A DNA stretch of 64,000 bases, from assembly GCA_029448655.1 (NCBI GenBank), contig JACCLO010000005.1:3410001-3474000 (forward strand), written 5' to 3'. Every line of letters starts with the position of its first letter. The first letter of the stretch is position 1. Below the pieces are notes generated by a model. The model made no database searches. It saw only the letters and a program-made list of their open reading frames with translations, and had not been told where the DNA came from. Position numbers and translations under genes: made by a program. This document shows positions 21,720 to 45,784 of the stretch, in pieces. The stretch is from Wolfiporia cocos. Taxonomy: Eukaryota > Basidiomycota > Agaricomycetes > Polyporales > Phaeolaceae.

Positions 21720-21724
21720 AGTTC

Positions 21725-22203
21725 TGACCCAGAAACTCACTTGTGTGTCTTTTGGAGACGGTTTAGTTGCAACAAGAGAAGAAACTAAGTAGCAATAGGT
21801 AGTAGAGCTAATGCGACGGGGTAGAGCAATGAATTGTTCTAAGGTCTTACGCCTTAGATGAGCAGCTTATATACACATGTGGGATCCGTTCAGATAAGCA
21901 TGCCCTAATGTAATGGGTCTGTGCGCACCAGCGGTAATGCTGTGCGCTTACAGGAGAATGAGTCACGTTGACTATTTCTTAAGTCATATGACGTGTGAGT
22001 CATAGGCCGATCGGTATATACAGCGGGCCGCTGACAAGAACGTTATGAGTCAGGTATTCTAGTACCTTCGAGAGGATTCGAGAAGAGTGACGTTTCGTGG
22101 TTAGGTTTTATAACTACGTTGCATAGGACTTGTCGTAAGACAAGTCGGAGAAATTTGATATAAATTCGGGAAAAATTAGGTAAATGCCTAGAAAACTGTG
22201 ACA
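21725..22203 (-). repeat. Element H 3' LTR
   Basis: TGACCCAGAAACTCACTTGT...GAAAACTGTGACA, 479 bp. It is directly followed on the right by the purine tract complement. It differs from the other H LTR at 'gacAagaac' and 'attcGgg'. Confidence 0.9.
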
Positions 22204-22217
22204 TTACCCCCTCTTCA
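22204..22217 (-). promoter_or_regulatory. Element H polypurine tract
   Basis: Minus strand TGAAGAGGGGGTAA next to the 3' LTR, matching B's tract. This supports use of the same reverse transcriptase. Confidence 0.8.
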
Positions 22218-22244
22218 GGCTTTTTAGTCCCTAAAAAGATATTT

Positions 22245-23081
22245 CTATCTTCCTGTAGAGCCGAAAGCTCCTTCTTTTCTAGTTCCCATGTTTCCATACC
22301 TGGCATCGTAGGCTTTGATGCTGGATATGTTGACTTCAGGGTTGGGTACTGGCAATATTAGCAATTGTGCTATTTTGTCAGTGGAGTTCACATGATAGTA
22401 GTCGTTACCGAAGTTCCTGATCATAACTTTGATTTCTCCTCGGTAATCCCAATCGATTACTCCTCCAACGACCAGTAGGTCTCTTTTTGCCATACTTGAT
22501 CGCGTCATTAGTTGACCATAGTGCCCGTACGGCAGTAGGATTTTTAATCCTGTTTCTATAGTCTCTAACTTTCCTGGAGGGATAGCCACATCTTTGGACG
22601 ACGTGATGTCGTATCCTGCCGAGTGGCTAGTTCCTTTTTCTGGGTATGCCAGAGAACTTCCTTGTTCTATGTTAAAGTCCTTGGCAAACATAAGATAGTC
22701 GTTGAAAACTATGTCGTCATCGACGAAGTTTCCATACGGGTCTCTTTTTACCCATCGAGAAGTGGGTTTGAGAGGTTTTTCAGGTCTCTCTTCATCAGAG
22801 TCATAACCCTCCGATTCGTCTTCGTTGACGTCATCGTTCATTAACGGCCAGTCGTCTGGATAGATGTAACGGTCTCCTACTTTCCAGTTGGGATCGTCTT
22901 CTGGGTCTGCGACGCGAACTTGGTGTTCGTCTACAGCTTGATTTGTCATTGATACTTGATGTATTATGACCGGTTTATTCTGTTGACGGGTACTCCGTCG
23001 TGGTGCCTCGTCGAAAGACTTTGCTTTGTATTCATTTACAATTTCTTCAGCACCTGTTAAGTTGGTTCGTTCGGCGGGCAT
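22245..23081 (-). CDS. dUTPase protein of element H (278 aa)
   Basis: The C-terminal half (about residues 145-278) is a trimeric-type dUTPase, which hydrolyses dUTP to dUMP and pyrophosphate. Motif 1 SAGYDITSS, motif 2 TRSSMAK, motif 3 GGVIDWDYRGE with the catalytic Asp, motif 4 DKIAQLLI and motif 5 EGAFGSTGR are all present. The N-terminal half is an acidic linker that aligns in character with the segment between chromodomain and dUTPase in element B's pol (EYKAKSF...RRSTRQ against EYKASHA...RRSARR). The ORF therefore looks like a pol 3' end that has gained its own start codon. A usual dUTPase is about 140-170 aa; the extra length is this linker. The frame is open and there is no sign of decay. 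It may supply dUTPase to particles in trans, or be a relic; its intactness favours use. Confidence 0.85.
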   Translation of the reverse strand: MPAERTNLTGAEEIVNEYKAKSFDEAPRRSTRQQNKPVIIHQVSMTNQAVDEHQVRVADPEDDPNWKVGDRYIYPDDWPLMNDDVNEDESEGYDSDEERPEKPLKPTSRWVKRDPYGNFVDDDIVFNDYLMFAKDFNIEQGSSLAYPEKGTSHSAGYDITSSKDVAIPPGKLETIETGLKILLPYGHYGQLMTRSSMAKRDLLVVGGVIDWDYRGEIKVMIRNFGNDYYHVNSTDKIAQLLILPVPNPEVNISSIKAYDARYGNMGTRKEGAFGSTGR

Positions 23082-23602
23082 GACTACGTTTGACTACATA
23101 AGGACGAGATATCTAGATAAAAATATCTAGATAAAAGAGTTCTTCTGACGTTTGCTTCTTGATGGTGTTCATACGAGGGTCGATAGATAGGGATACACCG
23201 GATCGTGGATTACACGCCGGGACTCAGTTTTTGGACGTATTACACATCCTGGCGCTGACGCCTGATCTAAGTTCAAAGGGGCCTATTACAACGTTCGTTA
23301 TCTGGGCGTCATTACTTTGCCGCAGATGCCACTCTCGGAGACATGTTAACTCCGAGATAACGGCGTGAACGCTAAGGTTATCCCTTTGACCTTCTGCTTG
23401 GAGCAAGAAGACCAACCCTTTAGCCATATGGGTCAAGGCTTTTGTGATAACGCTGAAGCAAAATCACCCGCTTAGCCCTGCGGTCCGGGCAACTCTAACC
23501 GGGTCTGGTTTGATCCCCCAGATCCCTGTACGAAACACCGCAAACTTCTGTTGAGGAGAAAAAGGAGAAAACTCCCAGAGCGTAATGCCGGGGGAGTAGT
23601 AG
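23082..23602 (-). other. Element H leader
   Basis: About 520 bp between primer site and ATG with no credible ORF. Two copies of the palindrome TATCTAGATA (23110-23119 and 23124-23133) lie about 30-50 nt upstream of the start codon. Confidence 0.6.
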
Positions 23603-23612
23603 AGAACAATTC
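23603..23612 (-). promoter_or_regulatory. Element H self-priming primer site
   Basis: Minus strand GAATTGTTCT begins three bases inside the 5' LTR and is the reverse complement of AGAACAATTC, the predicted transcript start in the LTR (plus-strand positions 23722-23731, 33 nt from the TATA). Confidence 0.75.
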
Positions 23613-23615
23613 AAA

Positions 23616-24094
23616 TGACCCAGAAACTCACTTGTGTGTCTTTTGGAGACGGTTTAGTTGCAACAAGAGAAGAAACTAAGTAGCAATAGGTAGTAGAGCT
23701 AATGCGACGGGGTAGAGCAATGAATTGTTCTAAGGTCTTACGCCTTAGATGAGCAGCTTATATACACATGTGGGATCCGTTCAGATAAGCATGCCCTAAT
23801 GTAATGGGTCTGTGCGCACCAGCGGTAATGCTGTGCGCTTACAGGAGAATGAGTCACGTTGACTATTTCTTAAGTCATATGACGTGTGAGTCATAGGCCG
23901 ATCGGTATATACAGCGGGCCGCTGACGAGAACGTTATGAGTCAGGTATTCTAGTACCTTCGAGAGGATTCGAGAAGAGTGACGTTTCGTGGTTAGGTTTT
24001 ATAACTACGTTGCATAGGACTTGTCGTAAGACAAGTCGGAGAAATTTGATATAAATTCAGGAAAAATTAGGTAAATGCCTAGAAAACTGTGACA
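23616..24094 (-). repeat. Element H 5' LTR
   Basis: 479 bp. TATA (complement of cttatata) at 23757-23764, then a CTAAGG...CCTTAG hairpin, then the transcript start. Ends TGACCCAG / AACTGTGACA. Confidence 0.9.
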
Positions 24095-24099
24095 AGTTC

Positions 24100-38220: not shown

Positions 38221-41200
38221 TTACTTTCCTGTGGAGCCGAAACCACCAGTACCGCGCTCGGATTTAATCTTTTCAAAGTAAGATTTTCCGTGTAGCGTAA
38301 TGTGCGGGTCCTTGGCAACTTCGCAGATGAGCTGAGCAATCTTATCACCGGCCCGAATATCGATAGATATGTCGGAGTGATTCCGGAGAATGATGATTAC
38401 TTCGCCTTGATAATCGTGGTCGATGACGCCACCCATTACGTCTATGCCTTTGCGGGCAAGACTAGAGCGGGGGGCGATACGTCCGTAAGTGCCGAAAGGT
38501 ACCTGGATTTTCAGTTTGGTATTGTATTCTGTCTGCCCGTGAGCTGGCAGAACGTCGCCTGTTGCAGTGTACAGGTCAAACCCAACCGAGTCCTTGGTTC
38601 CCTTTTCCGGCATTCGGCCGCCTTCACCGACTACGATTTTCAAGTCCGCATTTTGGTTAATGTCCGCTGACATCCATCCCCCGTCGGGGTGTCTAACCAT
38701 GCGTTGCTTAGGATCCTTCGCAAATTCTTCGCGATACTGCGGCCAGTCGTCTGGCCACGTGCATTCGTCGGCTTCCCAGTCGTCGCTGTCAGGGTCGAAG
38801 ACGTGAACTGCTTCTTTCCTTCTAGCTGAGCGCCTGAGGGGGACATCCTGCATTGGAATGGCGTGTGAAGCCTTGTATTCCTGCAGAATGTCGTATGCCG
38901 TGTCGAGATCGGCTTCGCGTACCCAGGAGTCGTCATTGATACCGAACCCTTTCCATCGGATTCTGTATTCAACTCTTCCTGCACGGAGACGATGATCTAA
39001 GATCTTCTCGACTTCCCATAACTCCTCGCCGTCGACCATTTCTGGTTGAGGCTCTGGTTTTTTCTGATGCACCGGGTCTTTGTACATGACCAACTTGGAA
39101 GCGTGAAATACTGGGTGATAAGCCCTGTATTGCTCGTCCATGTGTACCCTAAAGGTGACCGGAGATAATTGTTCAATTATCCTGAATGGTCCCAAATAGC
39201 GTGGACTAAGACTTCTTTCGGAGTCTTGCCAGCTACGGGCGTCAACGAGAACTTTGTCGCCGACTTTAAACGGTACCGAGCGCTTATGTTGATCATAATA
39301 CCAAGACCAGCGTTCAGCAGCCAGTTTCATAGCTGCCTTAGCTTGTTCTTGTGCTGACCATCGTTCGTAAGCAATGACATTTAGGTCCACGTATTGTGTT
39401 GGACGTAAATTCGTAGGTCCTGCGTTGGGATGCCTTCCTAGTTCGACAAAGAATGGACTATTCTTTGTTGTCTCACTAGCCGCGTTGTTGTACGCGAATT
39501 CGGCCGTAGGGAGAAACCATGACCAGTTATCCTTCTGAATAACATCGATGTAACATCTAAGATATTGTTCCAGGATTTGGTTAACTCTCTCCGTCTGGCC
39601 ATCCGCTTGCGGGTGATAGGCAGTTGTCATTGACCGTTGGATTCCCAATTGTTCACACCATCCCTTAAACAAGGCAGCTGCGAATTGCGGGCCTCTATCC
39701 GAAATGATTTGTTTCGGAAGTCCGTGGTTCGGATAAATCCGAAGGTACAGGAGGTTCGCTAATTCTTTTGCCGTTATCTTGTCTGACGTGGGAATGAAGT
39801 GTGCTCGTTTGGTAAGCCGGTCCACTATTACCATAATAGCATTGAATTGTTTCAATTCGCCGCTGGGTGGTAGGTGGACGATAAGGTCAATTGTGACGGT
39901 GTCCCAAGGTGCTTCCGGAACTGGGAGCGGTTGCAGGGGTCCGTACGGGGTCTGGTTGTGGTTCTTCATGCGTTGACATGTGTCACAACCTTCCACGTAT
40001 TGCTTTACCATCGTGGTCATTCCAGGCCACCAGTAATTACGTGATAGAAGTTCATAGGTCTTCCATCGTCCGAAGTGTCCGGCAGTCACATGGTCATGAT
40101 GTAACTCCAGAATCTTCGTGCGCAATTCTTTAGGCTCTTTTGGAACGTACACTTTTCCTCGTCTGAGGAGTAATCCGGCCTCCATGTTCCATTCCTGGAG
40201 ATCTTTACCGAATTCCTTGGGACCACTTTTCAGTAGTTCCTGGTAATCCTTGGTAATCTGATCGTCCATGAGGGCTTGTCGGATTTGTCGGAGGAGGTCC
40301 TCGTCGCCTGATTGTATCTCCTGCTGTGACGCTTCTAGCGCCCTAACCGTGAAGTATTCCGGTTTCAGCAAAATCTGATCGCGATTATCGAGTTCCACCC
40401 CCTCTTCATGGTCTGGCCTCCGTGACAGAGGATCAGCCGTAAGCATTGTTTTACCGGGTTTGTGGCACATGGTGAAGTTGAACCTTGTCAGGTAAAGACT
40501 CCAACGTGCCTGTCTCCGGGTTAGCCGTTGTGCCGATTTGAAATATGTCAGATTGAGATGATCCGACCAGACTTCAAATTTGTGTGGGTGTCCTTCGAGG
40601 TAATGTCTCCATTCCTCTAGAGCGCGGATGATTGCGAGCAACTCCTTGTCGTAAATCTCATAGTTCCTTTCGGGTGCTGATAGAGATTTCGAGTAGAAGG
40701 CTACCGGGTGCCAGAGCTTATCCTCCGAAGAGTATTGTGATAGCACTGCACCAGTTGCGTAATCGGAAGAATCCGCTTCCACGCGGAACGGGGACTCCTG
40801 ATCTGGGATCCGGAGTATTGGAGCCGATGTGAAAGCTTCCTTGAGAGTTTGGAAGGCTTCCGCTTGTTCGGGTCCCCAGTTCCATTGCGTGTTTTTCTTG
40901 GACAGTTCGGTTAACGGCTTAACCACTTTGGAGAAGTCTTTAATGAACCGCCGGTAGTAGTTGGCGAAGCCAACAAAGGCCTGGACGTCCTTCACCTTGG
41001 CAGGTGTAGGCCAGTCCATTACACCGGCTACCTTCTTAGGGTCCATTTCGACTTTTCCTTTGGAAATGATCATTCCCAGGTATTCAATACTGCTTTGTTC
41101 GAAGAAGCACTTTTCAGGCTTCGCGAACAAGTCGTTGTCTTGCAAGATTTGTAATACTTGCTTGACAATACGACGGTGTTCCAACAGGTCGTTTCTGAAC

Positions 41201-42756
41201 ACAAGGATGTCGTCTAGGTAGACAATGACCTTTCCTTCTCTGATAAGGTCACCTAGAATATCGTTCATCATGTGTTGGAACGTGCTGGGTGCATTACAAA
41301 AGCCGAAGTACATGACTACAGCTTCGTAAAGGCCGTTAGGCGTAATGAATGCGGTCTTCCATTCATCTCCCTCCTTGATTCTTACGTTGTTGTAACCCCA
41401 ACGCAAGTCGAGCTTCGTAAATATCGAAGCCTGGCTAAGCTTATCGATAAGCTCGTCTATGCGTGGGAGAGGGTACCTGTTTTTAATGGTCAAGTCGTTT
41501 ACTTTTCGGTAATCGACTACCATTCGGGCTCCGCCGTCTTTTTTAGGGACGAAGAAGACCGGGCTCGCGATCGGGGATTTTGAGTGTCGGATGTAGCCCT
41601 TCCGTAACTCTTCCTGGATCCACTGATCTAGCGAGTTCGCTTCCTGAGGAGACATCTTGTATGCCTTACTCGGGGGCGGTAGTACCGCGTCATCGGGGAA
41701 GTCGATGGCGTGATCGTATGGTTTCCGTTCGGGCATCCTTTCGGATGCGCGTTGAGAAAATACCGTGGGACCAAACTCCTGGTATTCCTCCGGAACCAGG
41801 GATTTCCATTTCTGGAGATCCGCATCTGTCAGGAATTCATCATCTGACTTCTCCGTTATCGACTGAATGGCATCGATAAGGAGTTCCGTTCCTTCGTCAA
41901 GGGTGTTCACCCAAGCGACAAAGGGATTCTCGGGCTCCTCTAAGCCGAGAAAATCTATTGGAAAGTCATTGATGATCTGATAGATGTTGCGGGGTTCGAT
42001 TTCATCTTCTTCCTCAGAAATCGAAACCCGTTTGCCATGTTTACATTTTTCCGTACACCGATATGTGAAGGTCCCTTCCGGCCAATTGAAGTCCGGGTTG
42101 TGTTTCAGGAACCAGTCATATCCGAGGATCACATCCGCATTCTGTACGTCCATTACGTACAAGAATTCGGTGGACTTGTGTTCCTCGTGCACCATATAAG
42201 CTTTTACTGCCATATTGATATTACCGGCGGTATTAGAGGTACCGTCGGCGTTACGAATTTCGAGAGGTGCAGGTAGTTTTTGAGTGACTAACTTTTCCTC
42301 ATGTACGAGTTTCTTATCAATGACGCTTATTGATGCACCGGTGTCGATTAATGCCATGGCGTTGACTTTCTTTCCATATACCCACAGTTCCACTTCGATA
42401 GAGAACGATTTATTGTCGTCTCGAGAACCGTTTCCATGTACATTATACAAAGTGAAAAACTTCGACGCGAGCGGGTCAGGATAAAAGTATTTTACAGGAG
42501 GGGCACGTGTAGCTAGTGTCCGAGTCCTCCGGGCAAAGTCCATTGCCGAGTTACCGAATATACCGAGATGGGATACCGGGTGACGTACGACCGCCTTATC
42601 TTCCCACAAGATAAGGGGTCTCTGTGAAGCCTCTTCGTAGAGGTGCGCTTCTTCGGGGCGCTGTACACTCCCAGCCGCTGCGGGGCTGGTGTGTTCTTCA
42701 CAGAACGTCTTCGAGACGTGTGGTTGGGGCGAGGGGAACCGAGATGGTCCCGACAT
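38221..42756 (-). CDS. pol: Pol polyprotein of element B: PR-RT-RNaseH-IN-chromodomain-dUTPase (1511 aa)
   Basis: The polyprotein copies RNA to DNA and integrates it. Aspartic protease LIDTGAS with DTGA at residues 138-141. RT about 390-560 with YLDD at 513-516. RNase H about 655-775. Integrase zinc domain with His near 886-894 and Cys 924/927, and a D-D-35-E triad at D957, D1020 and E1056. GPF/Y motif YLGPFRII near 1187. Chromodomain about 1247-1295 (EYRIRWKGF). dUTPase about 1370-1511 with motifs VGFDLYTA, APRSS, GGVIDHDYQGE, GDKIAQL and GGFGSTG. It overlaps gag by 59 nt in the +1 frame, so it is probably made by frameshifting or coupled initiation; the first Met is only the ORF's first Met. 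All catalytic residues are present. The C-terminal dUTPase is unusual for this class. Confidence 0.93.
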   Translation of the reverse strand: MSGPSRFPSPQPHVSKTFCEEHTSPAAAGSVQRPEEAHLYEEASQRPLILWEDKAVVRHPVSHLGIFGNSAMDFARRTRTLATRAPPVKYFYPDPLASKFFTLYNVHGNGSRDDNKSFSIEVELWVYGKKVNAMALIDTGASISVIDKKLVHEEKLVTQKLPAPLEIRNADGTSNTAGNINMAVKAYMVHEEHKSTEFLYVMDVQNADVILGYDWFLKHNPDFNWPEGTFTYRCTEKCKHGKRVSISEEEDEIEPRNIYQIINDFPIDFLGLEEPENPFVAWVNTLDEGTELLIDAIQSITEKSDDEFLTDADLQKWKSLVPEEYQEFGPTVFSQRASERMPERKPYDHAIDFPDDAVLPPPSKAYKMSPQEANSLDQWIQEELRKGYIRHSKSPIASPVFFVPKKDGGARMVVDYRKVNDLTIKNRYPLPRIDELIDKLSQASIFTKLDLRWGYNNVRIKEGDEWKTAFITPNGLYEAVVMYFGFCNAPSTFQHMMNDILGDLIREGKVIVYLDDILVFRNDLLEHRRIVKQVLQILQDNDLFAKPEKCFFEQSSIEYLGMIISKGKVEMDPKKVAGVMDWPTPAKVKDVQAFVGFANYYRRFIKDFSKVVKPLTELSKKNTQWNWGPEQAEAFQTLKEAFTSAPILRIPDQESPFRVEADSSDYATGAVLSQYSSEDKLWHPVAFYSKSLSAPERNYEIYDKELLAIIRALEEWRHYLEGHPHKFEVWSDHLNLTYFKSAQRLTRRQARWSLYLTRFNFTMCHKPGKTMLTADPLSRRPDHEEGVELDNRDQILLKPEYFTVRALEASQQEIQSGDEDLLRQIRQALMDDQITKDYQELLKSGPKEFGKDLQEWNMEAGLLLRRGKVYVPKEPKELRTKILELHHDHVTAGHFGRWKTYELLSRNYWWPGMTTMVKQYVEGCDTCQRMKNHNQTPYGPLQPLPVPEAPWDTVTIDLIVHLPPSGELKQFNAIMVIVDRLTKRAHFIPTSDKITAKELANLLYLRIYPNHGLPKQIISDRGPQFAAALFKGWCEQLGIQRSMTTAYHPQADGQTERVNQILEQYLRCYIDVIQKDNWSWFLPTAEFAYNNAASETTKNSPFFVELGRHPNAGPTNLRPTQYVDLNVIAYERWSAQEQAKAAMKLAAERWSWYYDQHKRSVPFKVGDKVLVDARSWQDSERSLSPRYLGPFRIIEQLSPVTFRVHMDEQYRAYHPVFHASKLVMYKDPVHQKKPEPQPEMVDGEELWEVEKILDHRLRAGRVEYRIRWKGFGINDDSWVREADLDTAYDILQEYKASHAIPMQDVPLRRSARRKEAVHVFDPDSDDWEADECTWPDDWPQYREEFAKDPKQRMVRHPDGGWMSADINQNADLKIVVGEGGRMPEKGTKDSVGFDLYTATGDVLPAHGQTEYNTKLKIQVPFGTYGRIAPRSSLARKGIDVMGGVIDHDYQGEVIIILRNHSDISIDIRAGDKIAQLICEVAKDPHITLHGKSYFEKIKSERGTGGFGSTGK

Positions 42757-44851: not shown

Positions 44852-45784
44852 CTATACAATCGCGAGTATATCCTCTTCTACCGAAGTAGTTGAGGGCCCT
44901 GCCACCTTGTCAGGTGGTGTTACACCGAAGGCAAAAGTAATTTGTAGCGCTACGCATTCTGCTACGATACGAGCCAAGTCCGTACGCCAATCCAAAAAGG
45001 AAATACTGCCGAGCTGTTTACAGTACTTTTTCATAATTCTCCAGTCTCTATTGGTGATCCTCCCCCGTCTCGCTCTATCTTTTACGTTATCCACCAAGTC
45101 CTCCAATTCTACTACCATAGTATGGAAACGCATGTCGTTTTCCATATGGAAGCCTGGGTAATTAGGGGGATGGTTGGCGAGAGGAGTGAGACGAGTGAGA
45201 GTGCCTTCTAGCATGGGAATAACTTGGTCGCATGCTTGGAGAGGCTTCTTCTTCCCGAAGACGAGGGAAGGGTCGAGAATCTTGTGGTTGGCCGGAACGG
45301 AAGGTCCGGCCGCCGGGCTGGAGAGACGGAGGGCCAGTGAAGAAGCTGCCTGCTTGGCTTCCTTGGCGGCTTGTTTGGCGGCGATTCGCTTATTCAGCTT
45401 ATCGCGGGCGAGCTTAAGCTTGTTGAGTTCGCGGAGTTCAATTAAATTCTCCATGGCGGTAATGGAAGCGGCTAGCTTCTCTTCCTCTGTCCAGATACGC
45501 TTGGCGAGCGGAACTGGTTTGGGAGGTCGAGGAGCGGGTTTCCCAGCCTCAGCAATGTGCTTTGGCATGTGGACGGGAATCTCCCAAAGATGGAGCTTCC
45601 CGGTGTAATCTTCCTTTACAGGAAGGGTGTATGTGACGTCCTCTGCCCGAGGAATGTCGGCGGTGTCGATGCGGCTGAGAAGGGACCGCTTTGCCGGTTT
45701 AACGTAGGGGGCAGTAGAGGAGCCACGGGTGCGACGGGTAACGCGGGGCATGATTCTAGAAAGTGCAGTCTTCATGAGAAACAA
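44852..45784 (-). CDS. ORF1 of element B, unknown protein upstream of gag (310 aa)
   Basis: The first ORF after the leader. No family recognised. Seen: a basic N-terminus (RIMPRVTRRTRG), a VKEDYTGKLHLWEIPVHM block, a proline-rich PAPRPPKPVPLAKR segment, a long Lys/Ala-rich probable helix (about residues 110-145), then FGKKKPLQACDQVIPMLEG and a charged C-terminal region (VVELEDLVDNVKDRARRGR) ending EDILAIV. No signal peptide, membrane segment or zinc motif is evident. Diverged copies exist in A (same length, 299 aa from the inner Met) and C (C-terminal part), all without stops, so the protein is kept by selection. It could be a gag-like accessory, nucleic-acid-binding or particle assembly factor; that is inference. 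Start choice: 45784, or the Met 11 codons later that A shares. Confidence 0.85.
   Translation of the reverse strand: MFLMKTALSRIMPRVTRRTRGSSTAPYVKPAKRSLLSRIDTADIPRAEDVTYTLPVKEDYTGKLHLWEIPVHMPKHIAEAGKPAPRPPKPVPLAKRIWTEEEKLAASITAMENLIELRELNKLKLARDKLNKRIAAKQAAKEAKQAASSLALRLSSPAAGPSVPANHKILDPSLVFGKKKPLQACDQVIPMLEGTLTRLTPLANHPPNYPGFHMENDMRFHTMVVELEDLVDNVKDRARRGRITNRDWRIMKKYCKQLGSISFLDWRTDLARIVAECVALQITFAFGVTPPDKVAGPSTTSVEEDILAIV

What the first reader, a model, noticed from the sequence alone, without database searches (positions are those of the whole stretch)
21725..24094. A mobile LTR element whose only gene is a dUTPase
Seen: a complete 2370-bp element (TSD AGTTC, LTRs differing at 2 of 479 bases, primer site and purine tract present) with one intact 278-aa ORF that has all five dUTPase motifs and no gag, PR, RT or IN. 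Its N-terminal linker resembles the pol segment between chromodomain and dUTPase in element B, so it appears to be a pol 3' end that gained its own start codon. Known: non-autonomous LTR elements are usually non-coding or keep gag. Inference: the element may travel by supplying dUTPase, lowering uracil in cDNA, while borrowing the rest of the machinery. I know of no described group like it.
Basis: partly seen in the sequence, partly recalled or inferred. Interest (0 to 1): 0.88.

Follow-up and report, generated by a model that had tools for sequence, protein, structure and literature searches.

The report
Gutted retrotransposon copy keeping only dUTPase
In the genome of what is likely the medicinal fungus Wolfiporia hoelen, one copy of a roughly 9-kb jumping element lacks some 6.6 kb of its middle, cut at a 7-base repeat so that the element's first start codon runs in frame into a leftover dUTPase; no second copy with this cut was found, and it is likely an ordinary defective element rather than a new dUTPase-carrying group.

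Summary
Window 21725-24094 (minus strand) is a complete LTR insertion: 5-bp target duplication, LTRs differing at 2 of 479 bases, polypurine tract, and one 278-aa ORF with a dUTPase domain. The H interior matches three elements of 9.0-9.6 kb at 97-98%, but split: its first 555 and last 864 bases lie 6.6-7.2 kb apart. The pieces meet in H at a 7-nt microhomology. In the relative read, the missing stretch holds most of an upstream ORF (ORF0), gag, PR, RT, IN and most of the chromodomain. The H ORF is codons 1-7 of ORF0 fused in frame to the 3' end of pol. The junction occurs once in the genome. H keeps a TATA-like site, an 11-nt self-priming signature and PPT, so rescue in trans is possible but not shown. 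The low dN/dS mostly predates insertion. The relatives are of a known kind: basidiomycete Ty3/gypsy chromoviruses with C-terminal dUTPase. Verdict: an ordinary deletion derivative with a curious in-frame fusion.

The parts
21720..21724 (.). target site duplication AGTTC, copy 1
24095..24099 (.). target site duplication AGTTC, copy 2
   Evidence: empty-site translation
21725..24094 (-). element H, 2370 bp, internally deleted Ty3/gypsy chromovirus copy
23616..24094 (-). 5' LTR, 479 bp
   Evidence: 2 of 479 differences to the 3' LTR
21725..22203 (-). 3' LTR, 479 bp
23758..23764 (-). TATATAA in the 5' LTR (LTR position 331), predicted promoter element
   Evidence: promoter function not tested
23721..23731 (-). 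LTR positions 364-374, AGAACAATTCA, predicted transcript start and self-primer
   Evidence: 11-nt exact complement of the primer site; 3 of 2000 shuffled LTRs give a match as long
23603..23613 (-). TGAATTGTTCT, predicted self-priming primer-binding site
   Evidence: also in the 4 of 4 other family copies tested (C2 was not tested)
23061..23615 (-). 5' segment shared with the relatives (leader plus codons 1-7 of ORF0), 555 bp
   Evidence: 97-98% to C4, C67a, C16
23061..23067 (-). deletion junction, 7-nt microhomology AACCAAC
   Evidence: junction found at 1 place in the genome
22204..23067 (-). 3' segment shared with the relatives' pol end (end of chromodomain, linker, dUTPase, 3' untranslated, PPT), 864 bp
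22245..23081 (-). 278-aa fusion ORF: ORF0 codons 1-7 + pol 3' end
22284..22646 (-). dUTPase domain (residues 146-266)
   Evidence: Pfam PF00692 E 1e-27
22204..22216 (-). polypurine tract GAAGAGGGGGTAA

Best explanation
H is the one copy found in this genome of an internally deleted Ty3/gypsy chromovirus, in which a 7-nt microhomology joins codon 7 of the upstream ORF0 in frame to the end of pol, leaving dUTPase as the only enzyme domain; the deletion likely arose by template switching during reverse transcription, and any movement since then would need proteins from predicted autonomous relatives. Shown: the two retained segments lie 6.6-7.2 kb apart in three near relatives; the junction is found once; the frame is open; LTRs, target duplication and PPT are in place. 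Inferred: reverse transcription before insertion rather than repair after it (about 0.6 to 0.4; the confidence below is for the single deleted copy, not for this step); that the LTR promoter and self-priming signature still work; that the ORF0 start codon would be used, since six short upstream ATGs precede it in the leader. Most likely the retained dUTPase is a by-product of where the breakpoints fell, with no role in the spread of H.
For: Split match of the H interior in C4, C67a and C16; base-level junction with AACCAAC at both ends in C4; an overlap of 7 nt or more is expected at 0.0004 of random breakpoint pairs; junction pattern at 1 place in 64.4 Mb with up to 3 mismatches, against 3 pol-side and 15 ORF0-side places by the same method and none for the reversed controls; domains in the deleted stretch of C67a. 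LTR divergence of H, 2 of 479, is like that of three other copies: 1 of 477, 2 of 478, 2 of 478.
Against: No copy identical to H was found (best segment 98.5%), so the donor is not identified; in C67a the shared stretch at the junction is only 6 nt (by eye). Template switching and post-insertion deletion leave the same scar, and the calls do not separate them. An in-frame fusion has a prior chance of about one in three, so it is neither surprising nor excluded as selected. Autonomy of the relatives is predicted only; in C4 ORF0 is shorter (227 aa).
Confidence: 0.93

Rival explanations
1. H founded, or belongs to, a non-autonomous group that moves by supplying dUTPase while borrowing Gag and Pol.
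For: LTRs, TSD, PPT and self-priming signature in place; open ORF with ORF0's own start codon; of 6 H-specific codon changes 5 are synonymous, P = 0.0023 under neutral site proportions.
Against: Junction at 1 place only. LTR divergence predicts about 1.7 changes in the ORF since insertion, so most of the 6 changes probably arose earlier, while the sequence was part of pol. Relatives already encode nearly the same dUTPase, so H would supply little that they lack (inference).
Confidence: 0.03
2. The deletion happened after a full-length copy had inserted at this site, by microhomology-mediated repair or replication slippage, so H never moved in its short form. This shares the single-deleted-copy reading and differs only in when and how the deletion arose.
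For: 7-nt microhomology fits this too; single copy.
Against: Nothing direct. Template switching is a well-known source of internally deleted LTR elements (recalled).
Confidence: 0.38
3. The fused dUTPase is expressed and kept by the host or by the family as a free enzyme, a local domestication.
For: Open ORF, conserved residues.
Against: Young single copy nested inside another retrotransposon's integrase gene; six upstream ATGs in the leader; no expression data available.
Confidence: 0.02

Closest known systems
PosPlaTy3-4, a Postia placenta Ty3/gypsy element with dUTPase at the C-terminus of Pol (PMC2864245, passages seen)
   Same: H's relative C67a has integrase, chromodomain and C-terminal dUTPase in one pol frame; both hosts are brown-rot polypores (recalled).
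   Different: H lacks all but the dUTPase end. No sequence of PosPlaTy3-4 was compared.
dUTPase-containing Metaviridae of Phanerochaete chrysosporium (Novikova and Blinov 2008; seen only as a citation in PMC2864245)
   Same: Basidiomycete Ty3/gypsy elements with a dUTPase.
   Different: Paper not read; nothing seen there of a dUTPase-only form.
Internally deleted non-autonomous LTR elements, TRIM and LARD (recalled; search listing only)
   Same: Short LTR element with cis signals and no replication genes.
   Different: TRIM and LARD are multi-copy groups (recalled); H is one copy, and keeps one enzyme domain.
Tf1-type self-primed LTR elements (Levin 1995; seen as a citation in PMC2864245; search listing)
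   Same: 11-nt complement between the site after the 5' LTR and an LTR stretch just downstream of a TATA-like box.
   Different: Priming not shown; here two bases separate the LTR end from the complement.

Membership tests
Ty3/gypsy chromovirus family of C4/C67a/C16 | LTR and interior homology | tested here: met
   LTR 94-98%, segments 97-98% to three copies
Ty3/gypsy chromovirus family of C4/C67a/C16 | gag, PR, RT, IN and chromodomain present | tested here: not met
   Absent in H but for the last part of the chromodomain. Present in C67a: Ty3_capsid (weak, E 0.0013, below cut-off), RVP, RVT_1, rve, Chromo. C67:62401-63233 was not fetched, so RNase H was not tested there (present in element B). 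H is a derivative, not a working member
Ty3/gypsy chromovirus family of C4/C67a/C16 | C-terminal dUTPase | tested here: met
   H; C67a
Non-autonomous LTR group (TRIM/LARD-like) | several copies sharing the same deleted structure | tested here: not met
   Junction at 1 place in G000; H the only joined match. Other strains not tested
Non-autonomous LTR group (TRIM/LARD-like) | LTRs, primer site and PPT kept, coding for replication lost | tested here: met
dUTPase (trimeric type) | family profile and conserved residues | tested here: met
   PF00692 1e-27; 14 residues shared by H and all 21 aligned dUTPase hits
dUTPase (trimeric type) | hydrolyses dUTP | not testable with these tools
   needs an assay
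Self-primed (Tf1-type) LTR element | transcript 5' end complementary to the primer site | tested here: inconclusive
   11-nt complement in 5 of 5 copies tested, H included; transcript start not mapped

The most novel reading that the evidence does not exclude
H is the founder of a satellite retrotransposon that makes free dUTPase from ORF0's start codon and rides on the Gag and Pol of its 9-kb relatives, protecting their cDNA and its own from uracil.
Probability: 0.03. Interest if true: 0.75.

Novelty: new member of a known kind. Interest (0 to 1): 0.2.

Why it matters
It replaces a proposed new class of mobile element with a deletion whose breakpoints are placed to within 7 bases. It also shows how one microhomology-driven deletion can turn an internal polyprotein domain into a free-standing reading frame with the element's own start codon, the raw step from which a satellite element or a domesticated gene could begin. 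If short copies with this junction were found in other strains, the dUTPase-satellite idea would become directly testable.

Tried and rejected
A dUTPase-only group: rejected for this genome by the split match and the junction search.

Other dUTPase-only copies: I looked at 25 places with a short open frame (20 fetched, plus L021, L024, L028, L031, L069). This is not exhaustive: other short-frame places in those lists were not opened, and the two calls scored 150 of 1428 and 139 of 1393 candidates. Of the 25, 11 have a chromodomain upstream (in L031 it belongs to the first of two dUTPases, and the second is unexplained); 8 align upstream with elements that have long open frames and the dUTPase between PR and RT or before PR (L076 with an interruption); 2 (L075, L078) have what reads by eye as another element's LTR just upstream; 3 (L081, L085, L089) abut repeats seen elsewhere; 1 (L084) is a truncated pol end beside sequence with no match among what I held. 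In none of the 25 did I see an H-like LTR leader joined to dUTPase.

The 243-aa dUTPase frame at 40 places of one score on 39 contigs: it looked like a standalone gene, but the one copy read, L069, has it directly after integrase and chromodomain, behind one in-frame stop. I suspected rDNA; Rfam found nothing in L069, and 5.8S rRNA was found only on C6 (39 of 1897 candidates scored).

dN/dS as a test of selection on the fused ORF: H against C4, C67a and C16 gives 0.10, 0.07 and 0.07, but those copies among themselves give 0.08-0.12, and too few changes postdate insertion. Rows with stops (L021, L026, L028) were dropped before that count.

Gag as the source of the start codon: my first guess, wrong; the 330-aa ORF0 precedes gag.

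A search on internal deletion with template switching gave 2 papers on non-LTR elements, not opened. Structure prediction was not run: the domain call was already strong.

Full report
What was claimed. A 2370-bp LTR element at 21725-24094 encodes only a dUTPase and may represent an undescribed group that travels by supplying this enzyme.

The observation. It is correct. The element lies on the minus strand, has a 5-bp target duplication (AGTTC), two 479-bp LTRs that differ at two positions, a polypurine tract, and one 278-aa ORF. The ORF carries a dUTPase domain (PF00692, 96.9 bits, residues 146-266; best solved relative E 4.4e-22) and shares 14 residues with all 21 dUTPase hits aligned to it. 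Removing H and one TSD copy leaves an uninterrupted integrase reading frame across the site, so H is nested in an older Ty3 element.

Where it comes from. The window lies in a 64.43-Mb genome of 76 contigs. The longest contig seen here (5.29 Mb) and a 3.76-Mb contig agree with Wolfiporia hoelen SS20, for which 64.44 Mb, 78 contigs, longest 5.29 Mb and N50 3.76 Mb are given (PMC9503964, passages seen); Wolfiporia cocos proteins are the best named hits of the ORF (best 79% identity). The identification is an inference; the contig counts differ by two.

H is a deletion copy. Searched against its own genome, the 1412-bp interior of H is found whole only at H (40 of 77 candidates scored). In C4:225394-234406, C67:57051-66074 (called C67a) and C16:74653-84241 it is found as two pieces, bases 1-555 and 549-1412, at 97-98% identity, with 6.6, 6.6 and 7.2 kb between them; two further copies (C2, and a second one on C67, called C67b) show the same split at 83-93% with 9.6 and 8.8 kb between. 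Positions 549-555, AACCAAC, are present at both ends in C4; in C67a 6 of these bases are shared (by eye). In random breakpoint pairs in the C4 sequences an overlap of 7 or more occurs at a rate of 0.0004. A 26-nt pattern across the junction, with up to 3 mismatches, has 1 place in the genome, H itself; the pol-side pattern has 3 places and the ORF0-side pattern 15, with none for the reversed controls.

What was lost and what was fused. In C67a the interior runs ORF0 (330 aa, no significant Pfam match), then a gag frame (634 aa stop to stop, weak Ty3_capsid match below its cut-off), then pol with protease and reverse transcriptase at the start and integrase, chromodomain and dUTPase at the end. 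The stretch C67:62401-63233 between the pieces read was not fetched, so RNase H was not tested there; one search gives an open frame of 1585 aa for this pol, and element B of the window (38221-42756) has all these domains including RNase H. The H ORF starts at the start codon of ORF0, keeps its first seven codons (MPAERTN) and continues in the pol frame inside the chromodomain match (residues 466-515 of the piece scanned; the junction falls near residue 501). In-frame joining has a chance of one in three.

Is it mobile? H has what it would need in cis: LTRs with a TATATAA, PPT, and an 11-nt stretch after the 5' LTR (TGAATTGTTCT) that is the exact complement of LTR positions 364-374, beginning 33 nt downstream of the first base of the TATATAA. 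This is the layout of self-primed reverse transcription (recalled; [quoted passage not shown] it is present in 5 of 5 copies tested, H included (C2 not tested), and a match as long appears in 3 of 2000 shuffled LTRs. Packaging and reverse transcription in trans are therefore possible. There is no evidence that they have happened to the short form: one copy was found. Six ATGs with short frames (up to 67 aa) precede the ORF in the leader downstream of the predicted transcript start, so its translation is uncertain too.

Is the ORF under selection as a separate gene? Against C4, C67a and C16 the H ORF gives dN/dS 0.10, 0.07 and 0.07, much as those copies among themselves (0.08-0.12). Six codons differ in H from all three; five changes are synonymous (P = 0.0023 under neutral proportions). 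But 2 differences in 479 bases of LTR predict only about 1.7 changes in the ORF since insertion, so most of these changes probably arose before insertion, under the constraint on pol. The test has no power for the fused ORF.

Other members and single LTRs. Besides H, five LTR-bounded copies (in C2 the 5' LTR is interrupted) and seven single LTRs above 80% identity were found; single means that no H interior of more than about 20 bases lies in the 1.5 kb held on either side. Five of the seven have exact 5-bp duplications (40 of 98 LTR candidates scored, so these are lower bounds). LTR differences are 1 of 477 (C4), 2 of 478 (C67a), 2 of 478 (C16), 2 of 317 (C2, partial) and 27 of 479 with gaps (C67b); target duplications are exact in C4, C16 and C2, differ by one base in C67a and do not match in C67b. 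By its LTRs H is about as young as C67a and C16.

What is known. dUTPase in basidiomycete Ty3/gypsy elements is described. In Postia placenta it sits at the N-terminus of Pol, at the C-terminus, or between PR and RT (PMC2864245, passages seen). Similar arrangements are seen in the genome of the window: C-terminal in H's family and element B, between PR and RT in L001 and L006, and between the gag end and PR in L003 and L008 (placement read from the translations by eye). Full-text searches for dUTPase with LTR retrotransposon and fungi (14 papers, 12 listed), with non-autonomous and retrotransposon (11 papers) and with basidiomycete and retrotransposon (5 papers, 3 listed) listed no title or abstract start that names a dUTPase-only element; apart from passages of PMC2864245 those papers were not opened.

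Verdict. An ordinary internally deleted copy of a known kind of element, with a neat in-frame fusion. The mechanism of deletion (likely template switching, against later repair) is inferred.

Noticed in passing
window 44852-45784 (-); L016:2038-3030: An ORF of 310-330 aa (ORF0) precedes gag in element B and in the H family. The two have no significant BLASTP similarity and no significant Pfam match. [quoted passage not shown]
   Followed up: partly
window 44852-45784 (-), protein P0041: Element B's ORF0 is 100% identical over 63% of its length to a protein filed under Fusarium falciforme: contamination or recent transfer.
   Followed up: no
L069 and 39 contigs of G000 between C7 and C72: 40 places on 39 contigs carry a match of one score and length, a 243-aa dUTPase frame; the one copy read (L069, on a 96-kb contig) is the end of a Ty3 pol behind a stop. 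Why so many contigs carry it is not explained.
   Followed up: partly
L001, L006; L003, L008; window 38221-42756: dUTPase occupies three different places in Ty3 polyproteins of one genome: between PR and RT, before PR (both by eye), and C-terminal.
   Followed up: partly
window 23603-23613 and 23721-23731: Self-priming signature (11-nt LTR complement after the 5' LTR) in a basidiomycete chromovirus, 5 of 5 copies tested.
   Followed up: yes
L084: A pol end cut off in or beside the chromodomain, close to where H is cut, abuts what reads by eye like a protein kinase gene on the other strand (not searched).
   Followed up: no
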